Shown here: positions 9,977 to 24,424 of the stretch, one piece after another | Position numbering within the stretch: the first letter of the stretch is position 1 | Layout: every line of letters starts with the position of its first letter | Origin: Deltaproteobacteria bacterium | GTDB taxonomy: Bacteria > Myxococcota_A > Polyangia > JAAYKL01 | DNA length: 53,458 nucleotides | NCBI GenBank assembly: GCA_028713995.1 | Contig: JAQTNF010000014.1 | Span: 1 to 53,458, forward strand | Direction of reading: 5' to 3' | The notes under the pieces: generated by a model | The model's database searches: none | What the model was told of the DNA's origin: nothing | The model's input: only the letters and a program-made list of their open reading frames with translations | Position numbers and translations under genes: made by a program

Positions 9977-11500
<1,524 letters not shown>

Positions 11501-11503
11501 GGC

Positions 11504-14646
<3,143 letters not shown>

Positions 14647-14683
14647 GATGTTCCTCCGCCCCGTTCGAGGGGCCAACGCTTCG

Positions 14684-14711
14684 AGTTTACGTCGGCGCGC
14701 GTTGGGGTCAA
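14684..14711 (-). promoter_or_regulatory. Candidate promoter of the prkA-yhbH-spoVR operon
   Basis: On the minus strand TTGACC (14711-14706) is separated by 16 bases from TAAACT (14689-14684). This is a reasonable -35/-10 pair, placing a start site roughly 30 bases before the prkA ATG and its GGAGGAAC. Sigma70 and sigmaS promoters share this pattern; enterobacterial yeaG is sigmaS-dependent, so a stress sigma factor is possible but cannot be told from sequence. Confidence 0.45.
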
Positions 14712-14750
14712 ACAATAAACGCCTGCGAAAAAGCTTCGAGCCGGGCTCGC

Positions 14751-14816: not shown

Positions 14817-16178
14817 ATGCGATACATGATCTACGTATGGATGGCGCTCGCGGCGGTGCTCGTATGCGCCTGCGGGGACGACGACGATTCAGCGCCGATC
14901 ACGGACGGCGGAATGGACGCGGGCGAGGACGGCGGCGACGACGGCGGGACCGGCACCGACACGCAGGACACGGACACGGGCACGGACACGGGCACGGGCG
15001 AGGACAACGTGCCGCCCGATCTCCCGGCGCTGTGCAAAGCGGTCGTGGTGAACCAGCCCGCGAGCGGCAAAGCGGACGGCCGCACGCCGGACCTGGCCGT
15101 GGCCGACGCCGACGCCGGGCTCCTCGTCTACGGCTACAACGACGTGACCACTCCGCCCGACTGGGACGTGGAGGCCAAGCCCTACGCGCCGGGCGAGGGT
15201 CTGGCCGACGCCTCGGTGGAGCCGGTCCCCGCCCCGGTGCTGGGCGAGGAGCCGTCGCTCGCCGCGCGCGGCGGCGAGTTCGGGCTCGTGTGGCTCGACA
15301 CGCGCTGGGATCCGGCGTGCGACCCCGAGAACCAGGACGCCTGCCGGCGCGACATCGCGTTCACGCGCCTCGGGCCGGACGGGCTGCCCGCGGACGGCGC
15401 GGTCGCGACCCGGGTCACGCTCAACGCAAACGTGAAGGTGCGGCCGGTCATCGCGGCCACGGACAGCGGCTTCCTCGTGGTCTGGAACGACGGCTCGGCG
15501 AGCGAGGCCGTGGTGCGCGCCGTGGGGCTCGACCCGCTCGGCGGGCCGGCCGCGGTGCAGGCTCTCTCCGGGGAGGAGAGCATCGTGGCGCACACGGTCC
15601 CGGCCATCGCGGCGATGGGCGACACGGCCGTGGTCGCATGGCTGCGCGCGGACCAGCAAGGGATCGCGGCGCGCGCGGTGGGTGCGGACGCGACGCCGTT
15701 CGGGAGCGTCACCGTGGTGGACGAGGGTGTCCTGGCCTCCGTGCCCGGCATCGCCGCGGGCGAGGACGGGTTCCTCGTGTCGTGGAGCCGGGAGACGAAC
15801 GGCGAGATGGAGGTCTTCACCCGCAGGCTCGACCCGAACGGTGCGCCCTCTGCCCCGGCGGCCCGCGCCACCTGGGTCAAGGGCGACGTCACGCAGTCCC
15901 GGCCGGCGTGGAACGGCACGGGTTTCGGCCTGGCCTGGCTCAGCCAGCGGGACAACGGAACGGACAAGTGCGCCGAGACCTCGTGCGAGAACCAGGTGTT
16001 CGTGAGCCTGCTCGACGCATACGGCGTCCCGGTCAGCCGGGCGGTCAGGCTCTCGGACAACCCGAACGTGTGCGTGGACCTGGCGTTCGCGTGGGACGGC
16101 GGGGGGTTCGCCGCCGCGTGGGAGCTGTTGCGCGACATGCGCTGGCAGATCTACTGGGGGCGTGCGGTGTGCGAGTGA
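14817..16178 (+). CDS. Secreted lipoprotein with Asp/Thr stalk and propeller-like repeats
   Basis: The protein has 453 residues. The start at 14817 (MRYMIYVWMALAAVLVCAC) follows GGGAGG and opens a lipoprotein signal; the modified Cys is probably residue 20 (V-C-A-C, a slightly atypical lipobox). An Asp/Gly/Thr-rich stalk spans ~21-65. From ~85 onward, short repeats with the pattern (G)xGFLVxWxD or GFGLAWLS recur (GFLVVWNDGSAS, DTAVVAWLR, GFLVSWSRET, GFGLAWLSQR, GGFAAAWELL), consistent with a beta-propeller built of ~50-residue blades. It is likely exported and lipid-anchored, with an unknown ligand. Transcribed divergently from prkA, downstream of the Fur-like site at 14757. No enzyme motif is seen. 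Confidence 0.85.
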   Translation: MRYMIYVWMALAAVLVCACGDDDDSAPITDGGMDAGEDGGDDGGTGTDTQDTDTGTDTGTGEDNVPPDLPALCKAVVVNQPASGKADGRTPDLAVADADAGLLVYGYNDVTTPPDWDVEAKPYAPGEGLADASVEPVPAPVLGEEPSLAARGGEFGLVWLDTRWDPACDPENQDACRRDIAFTRLGPDGLPADGAVATRVTLNANVKVRPVIAATDSGFLVVWNDGSASEAVVRAVGLDPLGGPAAVQALSGEESIVAHTVPAIAAMGDTAVVAWLRADQQGIAARAVGADATPFGSVTVVDEGVLASVPGIAAGEDGFLVSWSRETNGEMEVFTRRLDPNGAPSAPAARATWVKGDVTQSRPAWNGTGFGLAWLSQRDNGTDKCAETSCENQVFVSLLDAYGVPVSRAVRLSDNPNVCVDLAFAWDGGGFAAAWELLRDMRWQIYWGRAVCE

Positions 16179-16188
16179 CGACGCGCGT

Positions 16189-16216
16189 TTGACCGCCCCC
16201 GGTTCGGGATTACGCT
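16189..16216 (+). promoter_or_regulatory. Candidate promoter of the decayed hcp gene
   Basis: TTGACC (16189-16194), a 16-base spacer and TACGCT (16211-16216) lie 46 bases before the remnant start codon at 16262, which still has an AAGGAGGAG ribosome-binding site. The regulatory region therefore looks intact although the coding sequence is broken. Confidence 0.35.
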
Positions 16217-16261
16217 TACAGGACATCCGGGGCGGTACCCCGTTTCAACCACAAGGAGGAG

Positions 16262-16528
16262 ATGACGCGAGGGCAGCATCATGGTCGTCGCGGTCAGCCA
16301 CGAGATCGTTTCGCCCCGGGACGCCGCGTCGGGCCTTCCCACGGGCAAGCGCATGCACAAGCCGCTCGTCATCACCAAGGAGGTCGACAGGTCGAGCCCG
16401 CTCCTCTACTCCGCGCTCGTGAACAACGAGAACCTGCCCAAGGTGGAACTGAAATTCTGGGTATCGAGTGGATCTGGAACGACGGCGGGATCACGACCGG
16501 CGACGACTGGGAAACGCCCGTGAACTGA
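16262..16528 (+). pseudogene. hcp: Degenerate type VI secretion tube protein Hcp
   Basis: Three pieces of an Hcp-type protein can be read. After an SD-preceded ATG at 16262, the frame carrying REGSIMVVAVSHEI (from 16266) is out of phase with that ATG, so the usual first ~25 codons are missing. The middle reads SPRDAASGLPTGKRMHKPL, VITKEVDRSSPLLYSAL and NENLPKVELKFW, classic Hcp. Sequence then jumps to IEWIWNDGGITTGDDWE in another frame before a stop at 16528, skipping ~50 codons. So there are two internal deletions, both frame-breaking. Hcp normally forms the hexameric inner tube of type VI secretion. No other T6SS gene is in the window; this was probably a solitary hcp. A functional product is not expected. 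Confidence 0.8.
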
Positions 16529-16565
16529 CACCGCATCTCATGGAAGGGAGGGGAAGGGGAACAGG

Positions 16566-18197
16566 TCAAGCCTTCCCGCCCAGGATCGTTTCGAACTGGC
16601 GCAGGAGCCCTTTGAGGTCGTAGGGCTTCTGCAGAAAACCGGCGAGCCCCCGCCCCGCGAAGCGCGCCGTGACCTCCTGCTCGTTGTACCCGCTCGACAG
16701 GATGACCTTCACGTCCGGACGGATGCGGCGCAGCTCCTCGAACGTCTCGGCTCCGTCCATGCGCGGCATGGTGTTGTCGAGCAGCACCGCCGCGATCTCG
16801 TCCGGGCGCTTCCTGAAGGCCGAGAGGCCCTGCGGACCGTCCGCGGCCGTGATCACCCGGTAGCCGGCGGCCTCCAGCATGTTCTGCGCCACCTCGCGCA
16901 CGATCCGCTCGTCGTCGATGACGAGGATGAGCTGGCCGGCGCCCGCGTCCGCCGCGGGAGGGGGCGAAGAGCTCGGGGCCGCCTCGTGCGTATCGCCCCT
17001 CTCGGTCTCGCACGGGATGAGGACGCGCAGCGTGGTGCCCTTCCCGGGACGGCTGTCGACCGTGATGGCGCCGCCGTGCCCGCGCACGATGCCCTGCACC
17101 GCCGCGAGGCCCAGGCCGCGGCCCGTGAACTTGGTGCTGAAAAAGGGATCGAAGATGCGCGCCAAAGTCTCCTTGTCCATGCCGCAGCCGGTGTCCGTGA
17201 CCTCGAGACACGCGCACCATGTCCCCTTGGGAACGCCCTTGGCGTCGGCGCTCGTGGGCAGATCGGACGGCGCCGGGACGCGAAACGTTCGCAGCGTGAC
17301 GACACCCCTTTCGTCGCCGATGGCCTCGGAGGCGTTCGCCACCAGGTTCATGATCACCTGGCGGATCTGCGACGCGTCCGCCCCGATGGACGGCAGATCG
17401 CGCGCCAGATCCTGCACCAGGGTCACCTTCTTCGAGAGCGCGACCCGCAGGAGGTCGGCCATCTCCTCGATCGCCGCGGACAGATCGAGGGACCGCACCA
17501 CGAACCTGCCCTTGCCGGAGTAGGCGAGAAGCTGGTTCGTCAGCTCGGCCGCATGCTGCCCGGCCAGCTCGATCTGCTCCACGTAGCGGCGTGCCGCCGA
17601 CGAGACCGGCAGCTCCTTCTTGGCGAGGCTCGCGTTCCCGATGACGGCCATGAGCAGGTTGTTGAAGTCGTGCGCGATCCCGCCGGCCAGGATGCCGAGG
17701 CTCTCGAGCTTCTGGGCATGCTGGATCCGGGCCTGCAGGCCCTGGCGCTCCGCCTCGGCCGCCTTGCGCGCGGTCAGGTCGTGCAGCACGCCGATGAACG
17801 CCTGGGGGTTCCCCTTCTCGTCTCGGACGACCTTGGCCGACACTTCTGCCGGGTAGGTGCTGCCATCCTTGCGCACCACGGTGTACTCCGCGTTGCGCAC
17901 GATGACGTCGTTCAGCGCGGCCTGAGCGTTGTCGTGCGCGCGGTCCCGGTCCGCGGGAGCGAAGAACTCGAAGACCGTCACCTCCTGAGCCAGGAACTCC
18001 TCGACGCTCGTGCACCCGTAGAGGCGCGCGGCCTCCTCGTTGGCCATGACGAGGCGCCCCCCCAGATCGCACAGGACCACCGCATCCGGGGAGATCAGGA
18101 ACAGGCTGCGGTAGAGCTCCTCCGCACGCGAACGCAGCTCGTCGCGCGGCATCTCGGGCGCGCCCGATCCGCAGGGGAAATGCTTTCCCGTGGACAT
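16566..18197 (-). CDS. PAS-domain hybrid sensor histidine kinase with C-terminal receiver
   Basis: The protein has 543 residues, with no membrane segment, so it is probably cytosolic. It has a PAS domain (~25-145) with the PAC end FIGVLHDLTARK; HisKA with the phosphorylatable H176 in AGGIAHDFNN; HATPase_c with N-box NLVANASEA (~284-292), G1 VTDTGCGM (333-340) and G2 GRGLGLAAV (359-367); and a REC domain (~422-543) with the phospho-acceptor D474 in LLDNTMPRMDG and K in LQKPYD. The IAHDFNN type belongs to the HPK4 group common in myxobacteria, often working with NtrC-like regulators. Convergent with the hcp remnant and divergent from a lipoprotein gene. The ligand is unknown. The start is uncertain: the ATG at 18197 has no strong SD, and M16 is an alternative. 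Confidence 0.9.
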   Translation of the reverse strand: MSTGKHFPCGSGAPEMPRDELRSRAEELYRSLFLISPDAVVLCDLGGRLVMANEEAARLYGCTSVEEFLAQEVTVFEFFAPADRDRAHDNAQAALNDVIVRNAEYTVVRKDGSTYPAEVSAKVVRDEKGNPQAFIGVLHDLTARKAAEAERQGLQARIQHAQKLESLGILAGGIAHDFNNLLMAVIGNASLAKKELPVSSAARRYVEQIELAGQHAAELTNQLLAYSGKGRFVVRSLDLSAAIEEMADLLRVALSKKVTLVQDLARDLPSIGADASQIRQVIMNLVANASEAIGDERGVVTLRTFRVPAPSDLPTSADAKGVPKGTWCACLEVTDTGCGMDKETLARIFDPFFSTKFTGRGLGLAAVQGIVRGHGGAITVDSRPGKGTTLRVLIPCETERGDTHEAAPSSSPPPAADAGAGQLILVIDDERIVREVAQNMLEAAGYRVITAADGPQGLSAFRKRPDEIAAVLLDNTMPRMDGAETFEELRRIRPDVKVILSSGYNEQEVTARFAGRGLAGFLQKPYDLKGLLRQFETILGGKA

Positions 18198-21316: not shown

Positions 21317-21355
21317 TTATGCCTCCAGCTCCCACAGGTCGCGCTCCTCATCGGG
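21317..21355 (-). pseudogene. Remnant of the C-terminus of a 77-residue small protein
   Basis: Read on the minus strand, this stretch encodes MPDEERDLWELEA-stop, overlapping the last codons of the propeller lipoprotein in another frame. The same DEExDLWEL ending closes the small gene at 24191-24424, which lies directly upstream of that lipoprotein gene. The lipoprotein is thus flanked by one complete and one residual copy, suggesting a duplication or an insertion between copies. Confidence 0.4.
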
Positions 21356-24194
21356 CATCGCAGGGATGCTTGAGCACGAGGCCCAAGGGGCCGACAGCGT
21401 AGATCTCGCCGGCGTCGTTTCCAGAAATGGCGTTGAGCGTGTAGCCCGTGAGGCCCGGATCCTGCGGGCGCCAGGAGGTGCCGTCGAAGCGCACGATGGC
21501 GCCGAGGTGCCCCACGGCCCAAAGGTCGCTCGGGGAGGGGCCCCAGATATCGTTGACATCCTCGCTGATGCCGCTCGCCATGCTCGTCCAGGCGCCGGAG
21601 TCGTAGCCCAGGATCGCGCCGTCCTCCCCTGCGGCGAACAGGCGCCCCGCCCCGTCCGTCCAGACGCTTTGCAGCCGATATCCCGAGTCGCCGAGGACGT
21701 CCGTCCACTCGAATCCGTCGCCGACGAGGAGCCCGCCCTCCTCGCAGGACGCGGCGACCGGTCCCTCGGGCGGCGCCCACACGTCGGTGATCCGGTCGCA
21801 GATCGCGCCGTTCACCATGGTCTGCCACGAGTCCCGGTCCCACCTCGCGATCCTGCCGTGGTCGCCGACCGCGAAGATGGGCCCGACAGGTGCGCCGTCG
21901 AGGCTGCGCAGGAGCGCGTCGACATTTGCCTCGACCACCCACGCGGCGCCGTCGTGGCGAAGGACAACGCTTCCGAAGTCGGCGCTCGGGCGCCCGGGCT
22001 TGCGGCCCACTGCCCGGTAGCCCTCCTGCGTCCATGCGACGTCCGTGAGCACGAGGTCCATCCCGATGTCCACGTCGGTCCACGCCGTACCGTCGAAGCG
22101 CCGGATCCAGGCGCGGCCCTCGGCGGTCCCGCCGTCCTCCGGCTCGTCGTAGAAGTAGCCCACGGCCACGACGTCGTTCTCGCCTCTCCCGGACACGGCC
22201 CACAGCCCTGCCGCTCCGCCGTCCGGCGCGGGCCCGGACCATTCGAGCACCTTCGCCCAGGACACGCCGTCGTAGTGCAGGATCATGGTGCCGCACGCGG
22301 GAGGTGGCTCTCCATCGCCGACGATCCAACACACGTGCCCCACGGCGTAGACGCTGCCCCGGCCTGTCCCCCACAAGGACGTGACGACGAACCCTGGCCC
22401 GTAATCGAAGGAGAACACTGCGTCCATCTGCTGCCACGAGATGCCGTCGTAGTGCAGGATCGTGCTCGCGTCGCCGCCGGCGAAGACGTCGTCCGGCGCG
22501 CTCGCCCACACCGCCTGGAGCCAGGTGTCGGTCGGGGAGGGCATGGCGGTCCAGTCCTGGCCGTCGAAGCGCAGGATCGCGCCGTTCTTCCCGACCGCGA
22601 ACGCCTCGTCTCCGCTCGTCGCGAACACCGCCGACAGGTCGTCCTCGGACGTGCCGTAGGACCGGACCTCGCTCCACATCGCGCCGTCGTAGGTCCAGAT
22701 CACGCCCCCTTTGCCCACGGCGTAGGCCGCATCCGAGGAGGGAACGCTCACGTCCTCGAGGAACGCCATGCCCAGTGCGAGCGCGTTCCAAGACCCGCCG
22801 TCGTAGTGCAGCATCCGGCGCCTCGCGCCCACGGCCCACACGTCGTCGGCTCCTCGCCCATGGATGCGGGCGAGGCCGGCCTCGGGATCGTCGGTCGCGA
22901 GCGCGGTCCGCCACGTCCCGCTTTCGAAACGCAGGACGTCCCCTGCCGCGGTGACGCCGTGCGCCACCGCGCCGCCTGCTCCCCAAAGGCCGGTCACGGT
23001 GTCCTTTGCCGGCGTCGACAGGACAGAGATCCGGCCACCGTCGATCCGCAACACGCCGCCGTTCGTCTGGCCGGCCACCACGACGTCCCGGCCCGGGCTC
23101 CATGCCGACACAAGCTCTGTGACGGCAAAGCCGTTGATGTCGCGCCAGGACGAGCCGTCGAAATGGAGCAGCCTGCCCGTGTCGCCCACCGCGTAAACGT
23201 CGTGCGGGCCCGCTCCCCAGATCGCAGTCAGGTCCCCCTGGCCCCGCTCGGGGAGCTCCGCACGGCTCCAGGACTCCCCGTCCCGATGCAGGACCACCCC
23301 GTAGCTCCCCGCGATCCAGATGTCGCCCGGCCCGCTGCCCCACACGCTCTTGAAGAGGATGTACTCGTCCGTTTCCTCGCCGCACGTCAGGGCGGGATCG
23401 ACGGCGTTCCAGCCGTGCCCGTCGTTTCGCCAGATCGCGCACCGGCTCCCCACGGCCCACGCGTCGCCAGGCCCGCTCGCCCACACGGCTCGCAGATCGG
23501 CATCGATCTCGAGGACCGACCAGCCCTGTCCGTCGAAGCGCGCGACCACGTGGTCGCCCACCACGTGCACGTCGTCCGCTCCGGTGCCGAAGACGCCGTT
23601 CAGATCGTGCAGGCCGACGCCCGCGACCTCGATTTTCCTCCAGCCCGAGCCGTTGAAGCGCAGGATCGTGCCTTCTGATCCGACCGCGTAGATGTCGTTG
23701 GGCCCGCTGCCCCAGATATCGGCGAGCACGGTGTCAGGCGCGATCTCGAGAAAGGTCCAGGTCTTGCCGTCGAAGCGGAAGAGAGCAGAGCCGCTCACGG
23801 CGTAGTCGTCGTCCGGCCCGGCGCGCCAAAGGCCCATGTCCGAATGCGATCCGAAGCCCAGCCCGAGGCCGCTCCTCTCGCGTCGCCAGGTCTTGCCGTC
23901 GAACCGCAGGAAGGCGTCCTTCGAGGAAAGGACGAGGATCTCGTCCGGTCCTCCCCCGGCCACGGCAATGAAGTCCTCGGGCCCGAGAGGGGGGTTGACG
24001 AGCTGCCACCCGTCCGGCGAGCAGCTCGCGGCCACGGGCGGGGCGCCCGAGTCGTCCAGATCCGTGCCGTCACCCGAGCCCGCCGGTCCCGCGTCCCTGC
24101 TTGCGAGCGGTCCCACGTGGTAGCAGCCCGCGAGCGCGGCGAGAGGCAGGCAGGCCGCGAGGATCGCACGCGCAAATGCGGCCGAGGCCGTCAT
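21348..24194 (-). CDS. Large lipoprotein of tandem ~40-50-residue propeller repeats
   Basis: The protein has 948 residues. The ATG at 24194 overlaps the upstream stop (ATGA) and gives a lipoprotein signal with lipobox LAGC (MTASAAFARAILAACLPLAALAGC). A short Asp/Gly-rich linker (~28-55) leads into ~18 repeats with the pattern W(G/A)SGPxDxxAVG..G.ILRFDGxxW, for example GSGPNDIYAVGSEGTILRFNG and ASAPDDVFAGGDASTILHYDG. These are bacterial beta-propeller repeats predicting two or more propellers. It is probably outer-membrane anchored with a binding or adhesive role. A few blades carry Cys pairs (CGEETDEY, CWIVGDGEPPPACG). Translationally coupled to the small protein upstream. Confidence 0.9.
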   Translation of the reverse strand: MTASAAFARAILAACLPLAALAGCYHVGPLASRDAGPAGSGDGTDLDDSGAPPVAASCSPDGWQLVNPPLGPEDFIAVAGGGPDEILVLSSKDAFLRFDGKTWRRERSGLGLGFGSHSDMGLWRAGPDDDYAVSGSALFRFDGKTWTFLEIAPDTVLADIWGSGPNDIYAVGSEGTILRFNGSGWRKIEVAGVGLHDLNGVFGTGADDVHVVGDHVVARFDGQGWSVLEIDADLRAVWASGPGDAWAVGSRCAIWRNDGHGWNAVDPALTCGEETDEYILFKSVWGSGPGDIWIAGSYGVVLHRDGESWSRAELPERGQGDLTAIWGAGPHDVYAVGDTGRLLHFDGSSWRDINGFAVTELVSAWSPGRDVVVAGQTNGGVLRIDGGRISVLSTPAKDTVTGLWGAGGAVAHGVTAAGDVLRFESGTWRTALATDDPEAGLARIHGRGADDVWAVGARRRMLHYDGGSWNALALGMAFLEDVSVPSSDAAYAVGKGGVIWTYDGAMWSEVRSYGTSEDDLSAVFATSGDEAFAVGKNGAILRFDGQDWTAMPSPTDTWLQAVWASAPDDVFAGGDASTILHYDGISWQQMDAVFSFDYGPGFVVTSLWGTGRGSVYAVGHVCWIVGDGEPPPACGTMILHYDGVSWAKVLEWSGPAPDGGAAGLWAVSGRGENDVVAVGYFYDEPEDGGTAEGRAWIRRFDGTAWTDVDIGMDLVLTDVAWTQEGYRAVGRKPGRPSADFGSVVLRHDGAAWVVEANVDALLRSLDGAPVGPIFAVGDHGRIARWDRDSWQTMVNGAICDRITDVWAPPEGPVAASCEEGGLLVGDGFEWTDVLGDSGYRLQSVWTDGAGRLFAAGEDGAILGYDSGAWTSMASGISEDVNDIWGPSPSDLWAVGHLGAIVRFDGTSWRPQDPGLTGYTLNAISGNDAGEIYAVGPLGLVLKHPCDAR

Positions 24195-24424
24195 GCCGGT
24201 TCTCTTCGCGACAGCTCCCACAGGTCGTGCTCCTCGTCGTGGCTCATGAGGTAGGTCGCACCGTCCGCGCACAACAGCTCAAAATATCGGCGGTCGGGCT
24301 CGCGCCAACGGCCGAGCACCTCCTTCACTTCCAGGCGCCTTTCGCCCACGACGAGCGCGCGCGGCGTCTCCTCGCCGCGGTAGCCCGAGTAGCAGACGAC
24401 CTCGACTCTCAAGCTCCCGACCAT
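24191..24424 (-). CDS. Conserved small protein ending DEExDLWEL
   Basis: The protein has 77 residues and starts at the ATG at 24424 after a weak CAGGGG. It is beta-rich: VEVVCYSGYRGEETPRALVVG, RRLEVKEVLGRWREPDRRYFELL, ATYLMSHDEEHDLWELS. Comparable small proteins (a strand-turn-strand fold with a WELxxR ending) are common in deltaproteobacteria, but I know no function. Its TGA overlaps the ATG of the 948-residue lipoprotein, so the pair is co-translated. A residual copy of its C-terminus lies at 21317-21355. Confidence 0.75.
   Translation of the reverse strand: MVGSLRVEVVCYSGYRGEETPRALVVGERRLEVKEVLGRWREPDRRYFELLCADGATYLMSHDEEHDLWELSRREPA

What the first reader, a model, noticed from the sequence alone, without database searches (positions are those of the whole stretch)
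16262..16528. hcp pseudogene with two deletions but intact promoter and SD
The coding pieces are almost unchanged from functional Hcp, while two frame-breaking deletions removed the N-terminus and the middle. The decay is thus recent, indicating recent loss of a type VI component or effector-type Hcp in this lineage.
Basis: partly seen in the sequence, partly recalled or inferred. Interest (0 to 1): 0.5.

Follow-up and report, generated by a model that had tools for sequence, protein, structure and literature searches.

The report
Broken remnant of an hcp gene
This is probably the recently broken leftover of one gene for the inner tube of a bacterial injection machine, in a draft genome where searches for other parts of that machine found none; it is an ordinary pseudogene.

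Summary
Window 16266-16460 encodes 65 residues of the Hcp/TssD core (PF05638, E 1e-15; TIGR03344, E 4.7e-18); 16460-16528 encodes the C-terminal 22 in another frame. Against 56 close intact relatives, the first 25 residues (46 of 46 with a recognised start) and 50-57 middle residues are missing. The core shows no decay by substitution: each of its 65 residues occurs at that place in at least one relative. So the break is recent, or the assembly is wrong; no reads were available. "Intact promoter" is not confirmed, and the Shine-Dalgarno lies 2 bases from the ATG, against 6-13 in 46 of 48 relative rows with one. It is the only Hcp match in the genome; TssC, TssB, TssK and VgrG gave none. The nearest relatives lie in other families and phyla; the four same-family Hcps fetched are 28-45% identical. 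Best reading: a recently broken tube gene, probably horizontally acquired, without a machine. Ordinary; interest low.

The parts
16253..16264 (+). Shine-Dalgarno-like AAGGAGG (16253-16259) and the ATG (16262-16264) 2 bases after it; the ATG may be a by-product of the deletion junction
   Evidence: Spacing 2; 6-13 in 46 of 48 relative rows with an SD-like match, duplicates included, 9 more rows without one
16266..16460 (+). Hcp core piece, 65 codons (REGSIMVV...KVELKFW)
   Evidence: PF05638 and TIGR03344 matches; 83% identical to L020 over 65 residues
16460..16528 (+). Hcp C-terminal piece, 22 codons and stop, in a different frame from the core
   Evidence: 17 of 22 residues identical to the tails of L038 and L032; no Pfam or NCBIfam match for the 21-residue P0002
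16262..16528 (+). Mechanical 88-aa open frame: out of the Hcp frame through the core, back in it for the tail
   Evidence: the same frame is open through the core in 14 of 56 intact relatives

Best explanation
A former hcp/tssD gene, coding for the tube protein of a type VI secretion system, was inactivated by two deletions: one took the first 25 residues and probably the start, the other took 50-57 middle residues. What is left cannot give a full Hcp and is presumably drifting. Shown: the pieces, the missing parts, the lack of substitution decay in the core, and no match elsewhere in the genome (draft, estimated 97% complete) for Hcp, TssB, TssC, TssK or VgrG. Inferred: the gene reached this lineage by horizontal transfer rather than surviving from a T6SS of its own family, was under no selection without a machine, and was broken not long ago.
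For: Family matches. Only Hcp match in the genome; no TssC (9), TssB (17), TssK (18) or VgrG (36). The same TssC search finds it in 24 of 24 f11/f26 genomes that I chose, for close Hcp matches, from the 99 other genomes with a match (in G216 the match is weaker, E 3.7e-47). Columns conserved in at least 80% of 56 relatives: 35 of 38 kept, the 3 changes conservative (V for I, V for L, R for K); relatives themselves depart at a median of 2 (range 0-7); each of the 65 residues occurs in at least one relative at its place. GC3 of the core 0.94 and of the tail 0.91, like six nearby genes (0.84-0.97). Identity over the core: 83% to Bacteroidetes L020, 81.5% to Desulfobulbaceae L019 and to f11 L078, but 28-45% to the four same-family Hcps. 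AU tests reject grouping with those four (p 0.03) and with the two nearest of them (p 2e-5).
Against: The tree rests on 65 columns, is poorly resolved and carries long-branch warnings. In it the remnant branches (91/92) beside a group of 13 rows that contains all four same-family Hcps, so vertical descent is not excluded. The nearest DNA is only 79.5% identical, so no recent donor is identified, and GC3 matches the host, which gives no sign of foreign origin. The genome is a draft of 218 contigs, and reads could not be checked.
Confidence: 0.65

Rival explanations
1. Last relic of a T6SS that this lineage had by descent and lost as a whole, with hcp the last gene to decay.
For: In L019 and L020 this hcp type sits between TssB/TssC and TssF/TssG. 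Two of 13 same-family genomes have both TssC and Hcp (G009, G013). The tree puts the remnant beside a group that includes the family's Hcps.
Against: No match to any of four other T6SS families, and no second Hcp, in the genome. Family Hcps are 28-45% identical. Grouping with them is rejected, p 0.03 and 2e-5. The adjacent genes are a lipoprotein-like gene without a Pfam match and a hybrid histidine kinase, not T6SS genes.
Confidence: 0.2
2. Assembly artefact: an intact hcp was mis-assembled in a draft contig, giving two false deletions.
For: Draft genome of 218 contigs. The core shows no substitution decay, as an intact gene would.
Against: Two separate deletions in one short gene, about 16 kb inside a 53-kb contig, with no second hcp match in the assembly to cause mis-joining. 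The short SD-ATG spacing fits a real deletion that took the start, though equally a false one.
Confidence: 0.12
3. The 88-aa open frame, or the 80-aa frame from the internal Met at 16281, is a functional small protein.
For: Both frames are open, and an SD-like sequence precedes the first.
Against: The 88-aa frame is the Hcp core read out of frame; the same frame happens to be open in 14 of 56 intact relatives. The coding pattern in the core is that of the Hcp frame, GC by codon position 0.60/0.40/0.94. No promoter-like site at the tool's threshold.
Confidence: 0.03

Closest known systems
Hcp / TssD, T6SS tube protein (TIGR03344, Pfam PF05638; structure 3he1, Hcp3)
   Same: Core and C-terminal sequence, up to 83% identity over the 65 core residues
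   Different: 25 N-terminal and 50-57 middle residues missing, frames broken; TssB, TssC, TssK and VgrG not found in the genome
Orphan hcp genes away from the main T6SS cluster (the term is in papers listed; papers not read, notion recalled)
   Same: An hcp without T6SS neighbours
   Different: Here no T6SS was detected in the genome, and the gene is broken

Membership tests
Hcp / TssD (TIGR03344, PF05638) | Score over the family's curated cut-off | tested here: met
   58.6 bits against 23.5 and 65.6 against 58.9, for the frame that holds the core piece; the tail alone gave no match
Hcp / TssD (TIGR03344, PF05638) | Full-length domain in one open frame | tested here: not met
   25 N-terminal and 50-57 middle residues missing; core and tail in different frames
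Hcp / TssD (TIGR03344, PF05638) | Works with a T6SS (TssB, TssC, TssK, VgrG in the genome) | tested here: not met
   0 of 4 families found in the draft genome
Pseudogene | Frame-disrupted copy of a gene whose intact relatives exist | tested here: met
   56 close intact relatives aligned
Pseudogene | Not expressed as a functional product | not testable with these tools
   needs transcript or peptide data

The most novel reading that the evidence does not exclude
The two deletions cancel in frame, so that an 88-aa frame runs from the ATG to the original Hcp stop. It could be expressed as a new small protein made by out-of-frame reading of an hcp gene.
Probability: 0.02. Interest if true: 0.45.

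Novelty: new member of a known kind. Interest (0 to 1): 0.1.

Why it matters
It is a clean small example of a lone T6SS tube gene caught early in decay in a genome where no machine was detected, in line with the patchy spread of such genes in this class (100 of 317 genomes had a match). It opens no larger question.

Tried and rejected
Effector-type (extended) Hcp: rejected, since no extension is present and in L019 and L020 the homologues are genes inside T6SS clusters. Phage or viral origin: 28 candidate stretches in viral contigs, none confirmed; phage records gave 3 matches, at most 49.3% identical; plasmid records gave 159, all under 60%. Shared flanks: 16179-16265 and 16526-16640 gave no hit at E 0.05 to the loci fetched (L001, L077 and L107, which are the window itself, left out). 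Empty-site comparison: the lipoprotein-like protein has matches in 12 of 13 same-family genomes, one of them weak (G003, E 4e-4); the fetched flanks (at most about 1.5 kb a side) held neither the PrkA neighbour nor hcp, and only one weak histidine-kinase match (22.7% identity, L118), so no matching site was found. Among the 14 family genomes held, only the window's own is of its genus.

Rows dropped before counts: 99 relatives are the non-redundant ORFs of 140-260 aa among 128 phmmer hits; the close set of 56 is those with E below 1e-22; the tree used 91 rows after gappy, identical and at least 97% identical rows were removed. In one search rows were chosen by a start motif that begins Met-Ala, so that they all begin ATGGC follows from the choice and I do not use it as evidence; SD matching was loose (4 bases or more), and of 57 rows (duplicates included) 9 had none and 2 of the other 48 fell outside 6-13.

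Two literature searches were seen as listings with abstract starts only; no paper was read.

Full report
What is there. Window 16262-16528 is one open frame of 88 codons, but not a normal gene. From 16266 another frame encodes 65 residues of the Hcp core, and from 16460 the frame of the ATG encodes the last 22 residues and the stop. The frame that holds the core scores E 1e-15 with PF05638, 4.7e-18 with TIGR03344, and matches solved Hcp structures (3he1, E 1.4e-17). Against 56 close intact relatives, 25 N-terminal residues (46 of the 46 rows in which the start motif was recognised) and 50-57 middle residues (56 of 56) are absent. The two breaks cancel in frame, which leaves the 88-codon frame. 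The same frame is open through the core in 14 of 56 intact relatives, so its openness is not remarkable.

Start signals. An AAGGAGG at 16253-16259 lies 2 bases before the ATG. Of 57 relative rows (duplicates included, chosen by a Met-Ala start), 48 had an SD-like match by a loose rule, and 46 of these lie 6-13 bases from the start. I infer that the original start was removed by the first deletion and that the present ATG may be made by the junction. No sigma-70-like promoter reached the tool's threshold in 16100-16700; by eye there is a weaker pair (8 of 12) at 16189-16216, and other promoter types were not tested. 'Intact promoter' is therefore unconfirmed rather than disproved.

How recent. 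In the core, 35 of 38 columns conserved at 80% or more are kept, and the three departures are conservative; relatives depart at a median of 2 (range 0-7). Each of the 65 residues occurs in at least one of 56 relatives at its place. By hand calculation, and if most random changes would give a residue unseen at that place, this allows about three amino-acid changes at most (95%), or about 0.02 per nonsynonymous site, since the break. In the core tree the remnant has a short end branch (0.04; median 0.085). GC by codon position is 0.60/0.40/0.94; six nearby genes have GC3 0.84-0.97. The break is recent in that sense, or the assembly is wrong, which I could not test.

The genome around it. The window is a whole contig (53,458 bases) of a 4.98-Mb draft of 218 contigs, 97% complete. 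It holds no second Hcp match and none to TssC, TssB, TssK or VgrG. The searches work in this class: TssC is found in 24 of 24 f11/f26 genomes, which I chose for close Hcp matches out of the 99 other genomes with a match, and in 2 of 13 same-family genomes; TssK is found in 4 of 4 TssC-bearing genomes tried. Against a simple link, two other genomes with Hcp matches (G026, G048) and one same-family genome with an Hcp (G011) gave no TssC. The neighbours here are a lipoprotein-like gene (so named by eye; no Pfam match), a PAS hybrid histidine kinase, and beyond the first PrkA and SpoVR: no T6SS genes among the nine proteins scanned.

Where it came from. The nearest proteins are scattered: Bacteroidetes L020 (83%), Desulfobulbaceae L019 and f11 genome G203 (81.5%), then Fibrobacteres, Planctomycetota and Myxococcales. 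The four Hcps of its own family are 28-45% identical, and AU tests reject grouping with them (p 0.03; with the two nearest 2e-5), though the tree is weak and branches the remnant beside a group that includes them. In L019 and L020 the intact gene lies between TssB/TssC and TssF/TssG. I infer horizontal gain followed by breakage, with inherited T6SS loss as the main rival. No viral contig carried a confirmed relative; plasmid and phage matches are all under 60% identity.

Verdict. Most likely a real, recent, ordinary pseudogene of a T6SS tube gene in a genome with no T6SS detected by these searches. Two literature searches (listings only) were made for context, and I make no claim about what is in print.

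Noticed in passing
L057 (JANWJG010000087.1): A record titled Candidatus Nitrosotalea (an archaeon, by recall) encodes an Hcp 63% identical to the remnant; probably bacterial contamination of that MAG.
   Followed up: no
L078 and beyond (G203:C29, 10915-12640): Three Hcp matches in a row within 1.8 kb; pairs of Hcp matches 600-700 bases apart also occur in G281-G286.
   Followed up: no
window 21348-24272, - strand: A 974-aa frame with many repeats of an 'AVG..G.ILRFDG..W' type (by eye), marginal match to PSII_BNR, YCF48-like (27.9 bits, cut-off 27).
   Followed up: no
window 9977-14715, - strand: PrkA (12610-14715) and SpoVR (9977-11500) genes close together, beside the lipoprotein-like gene that precedes the remnant.
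   Followed up: no
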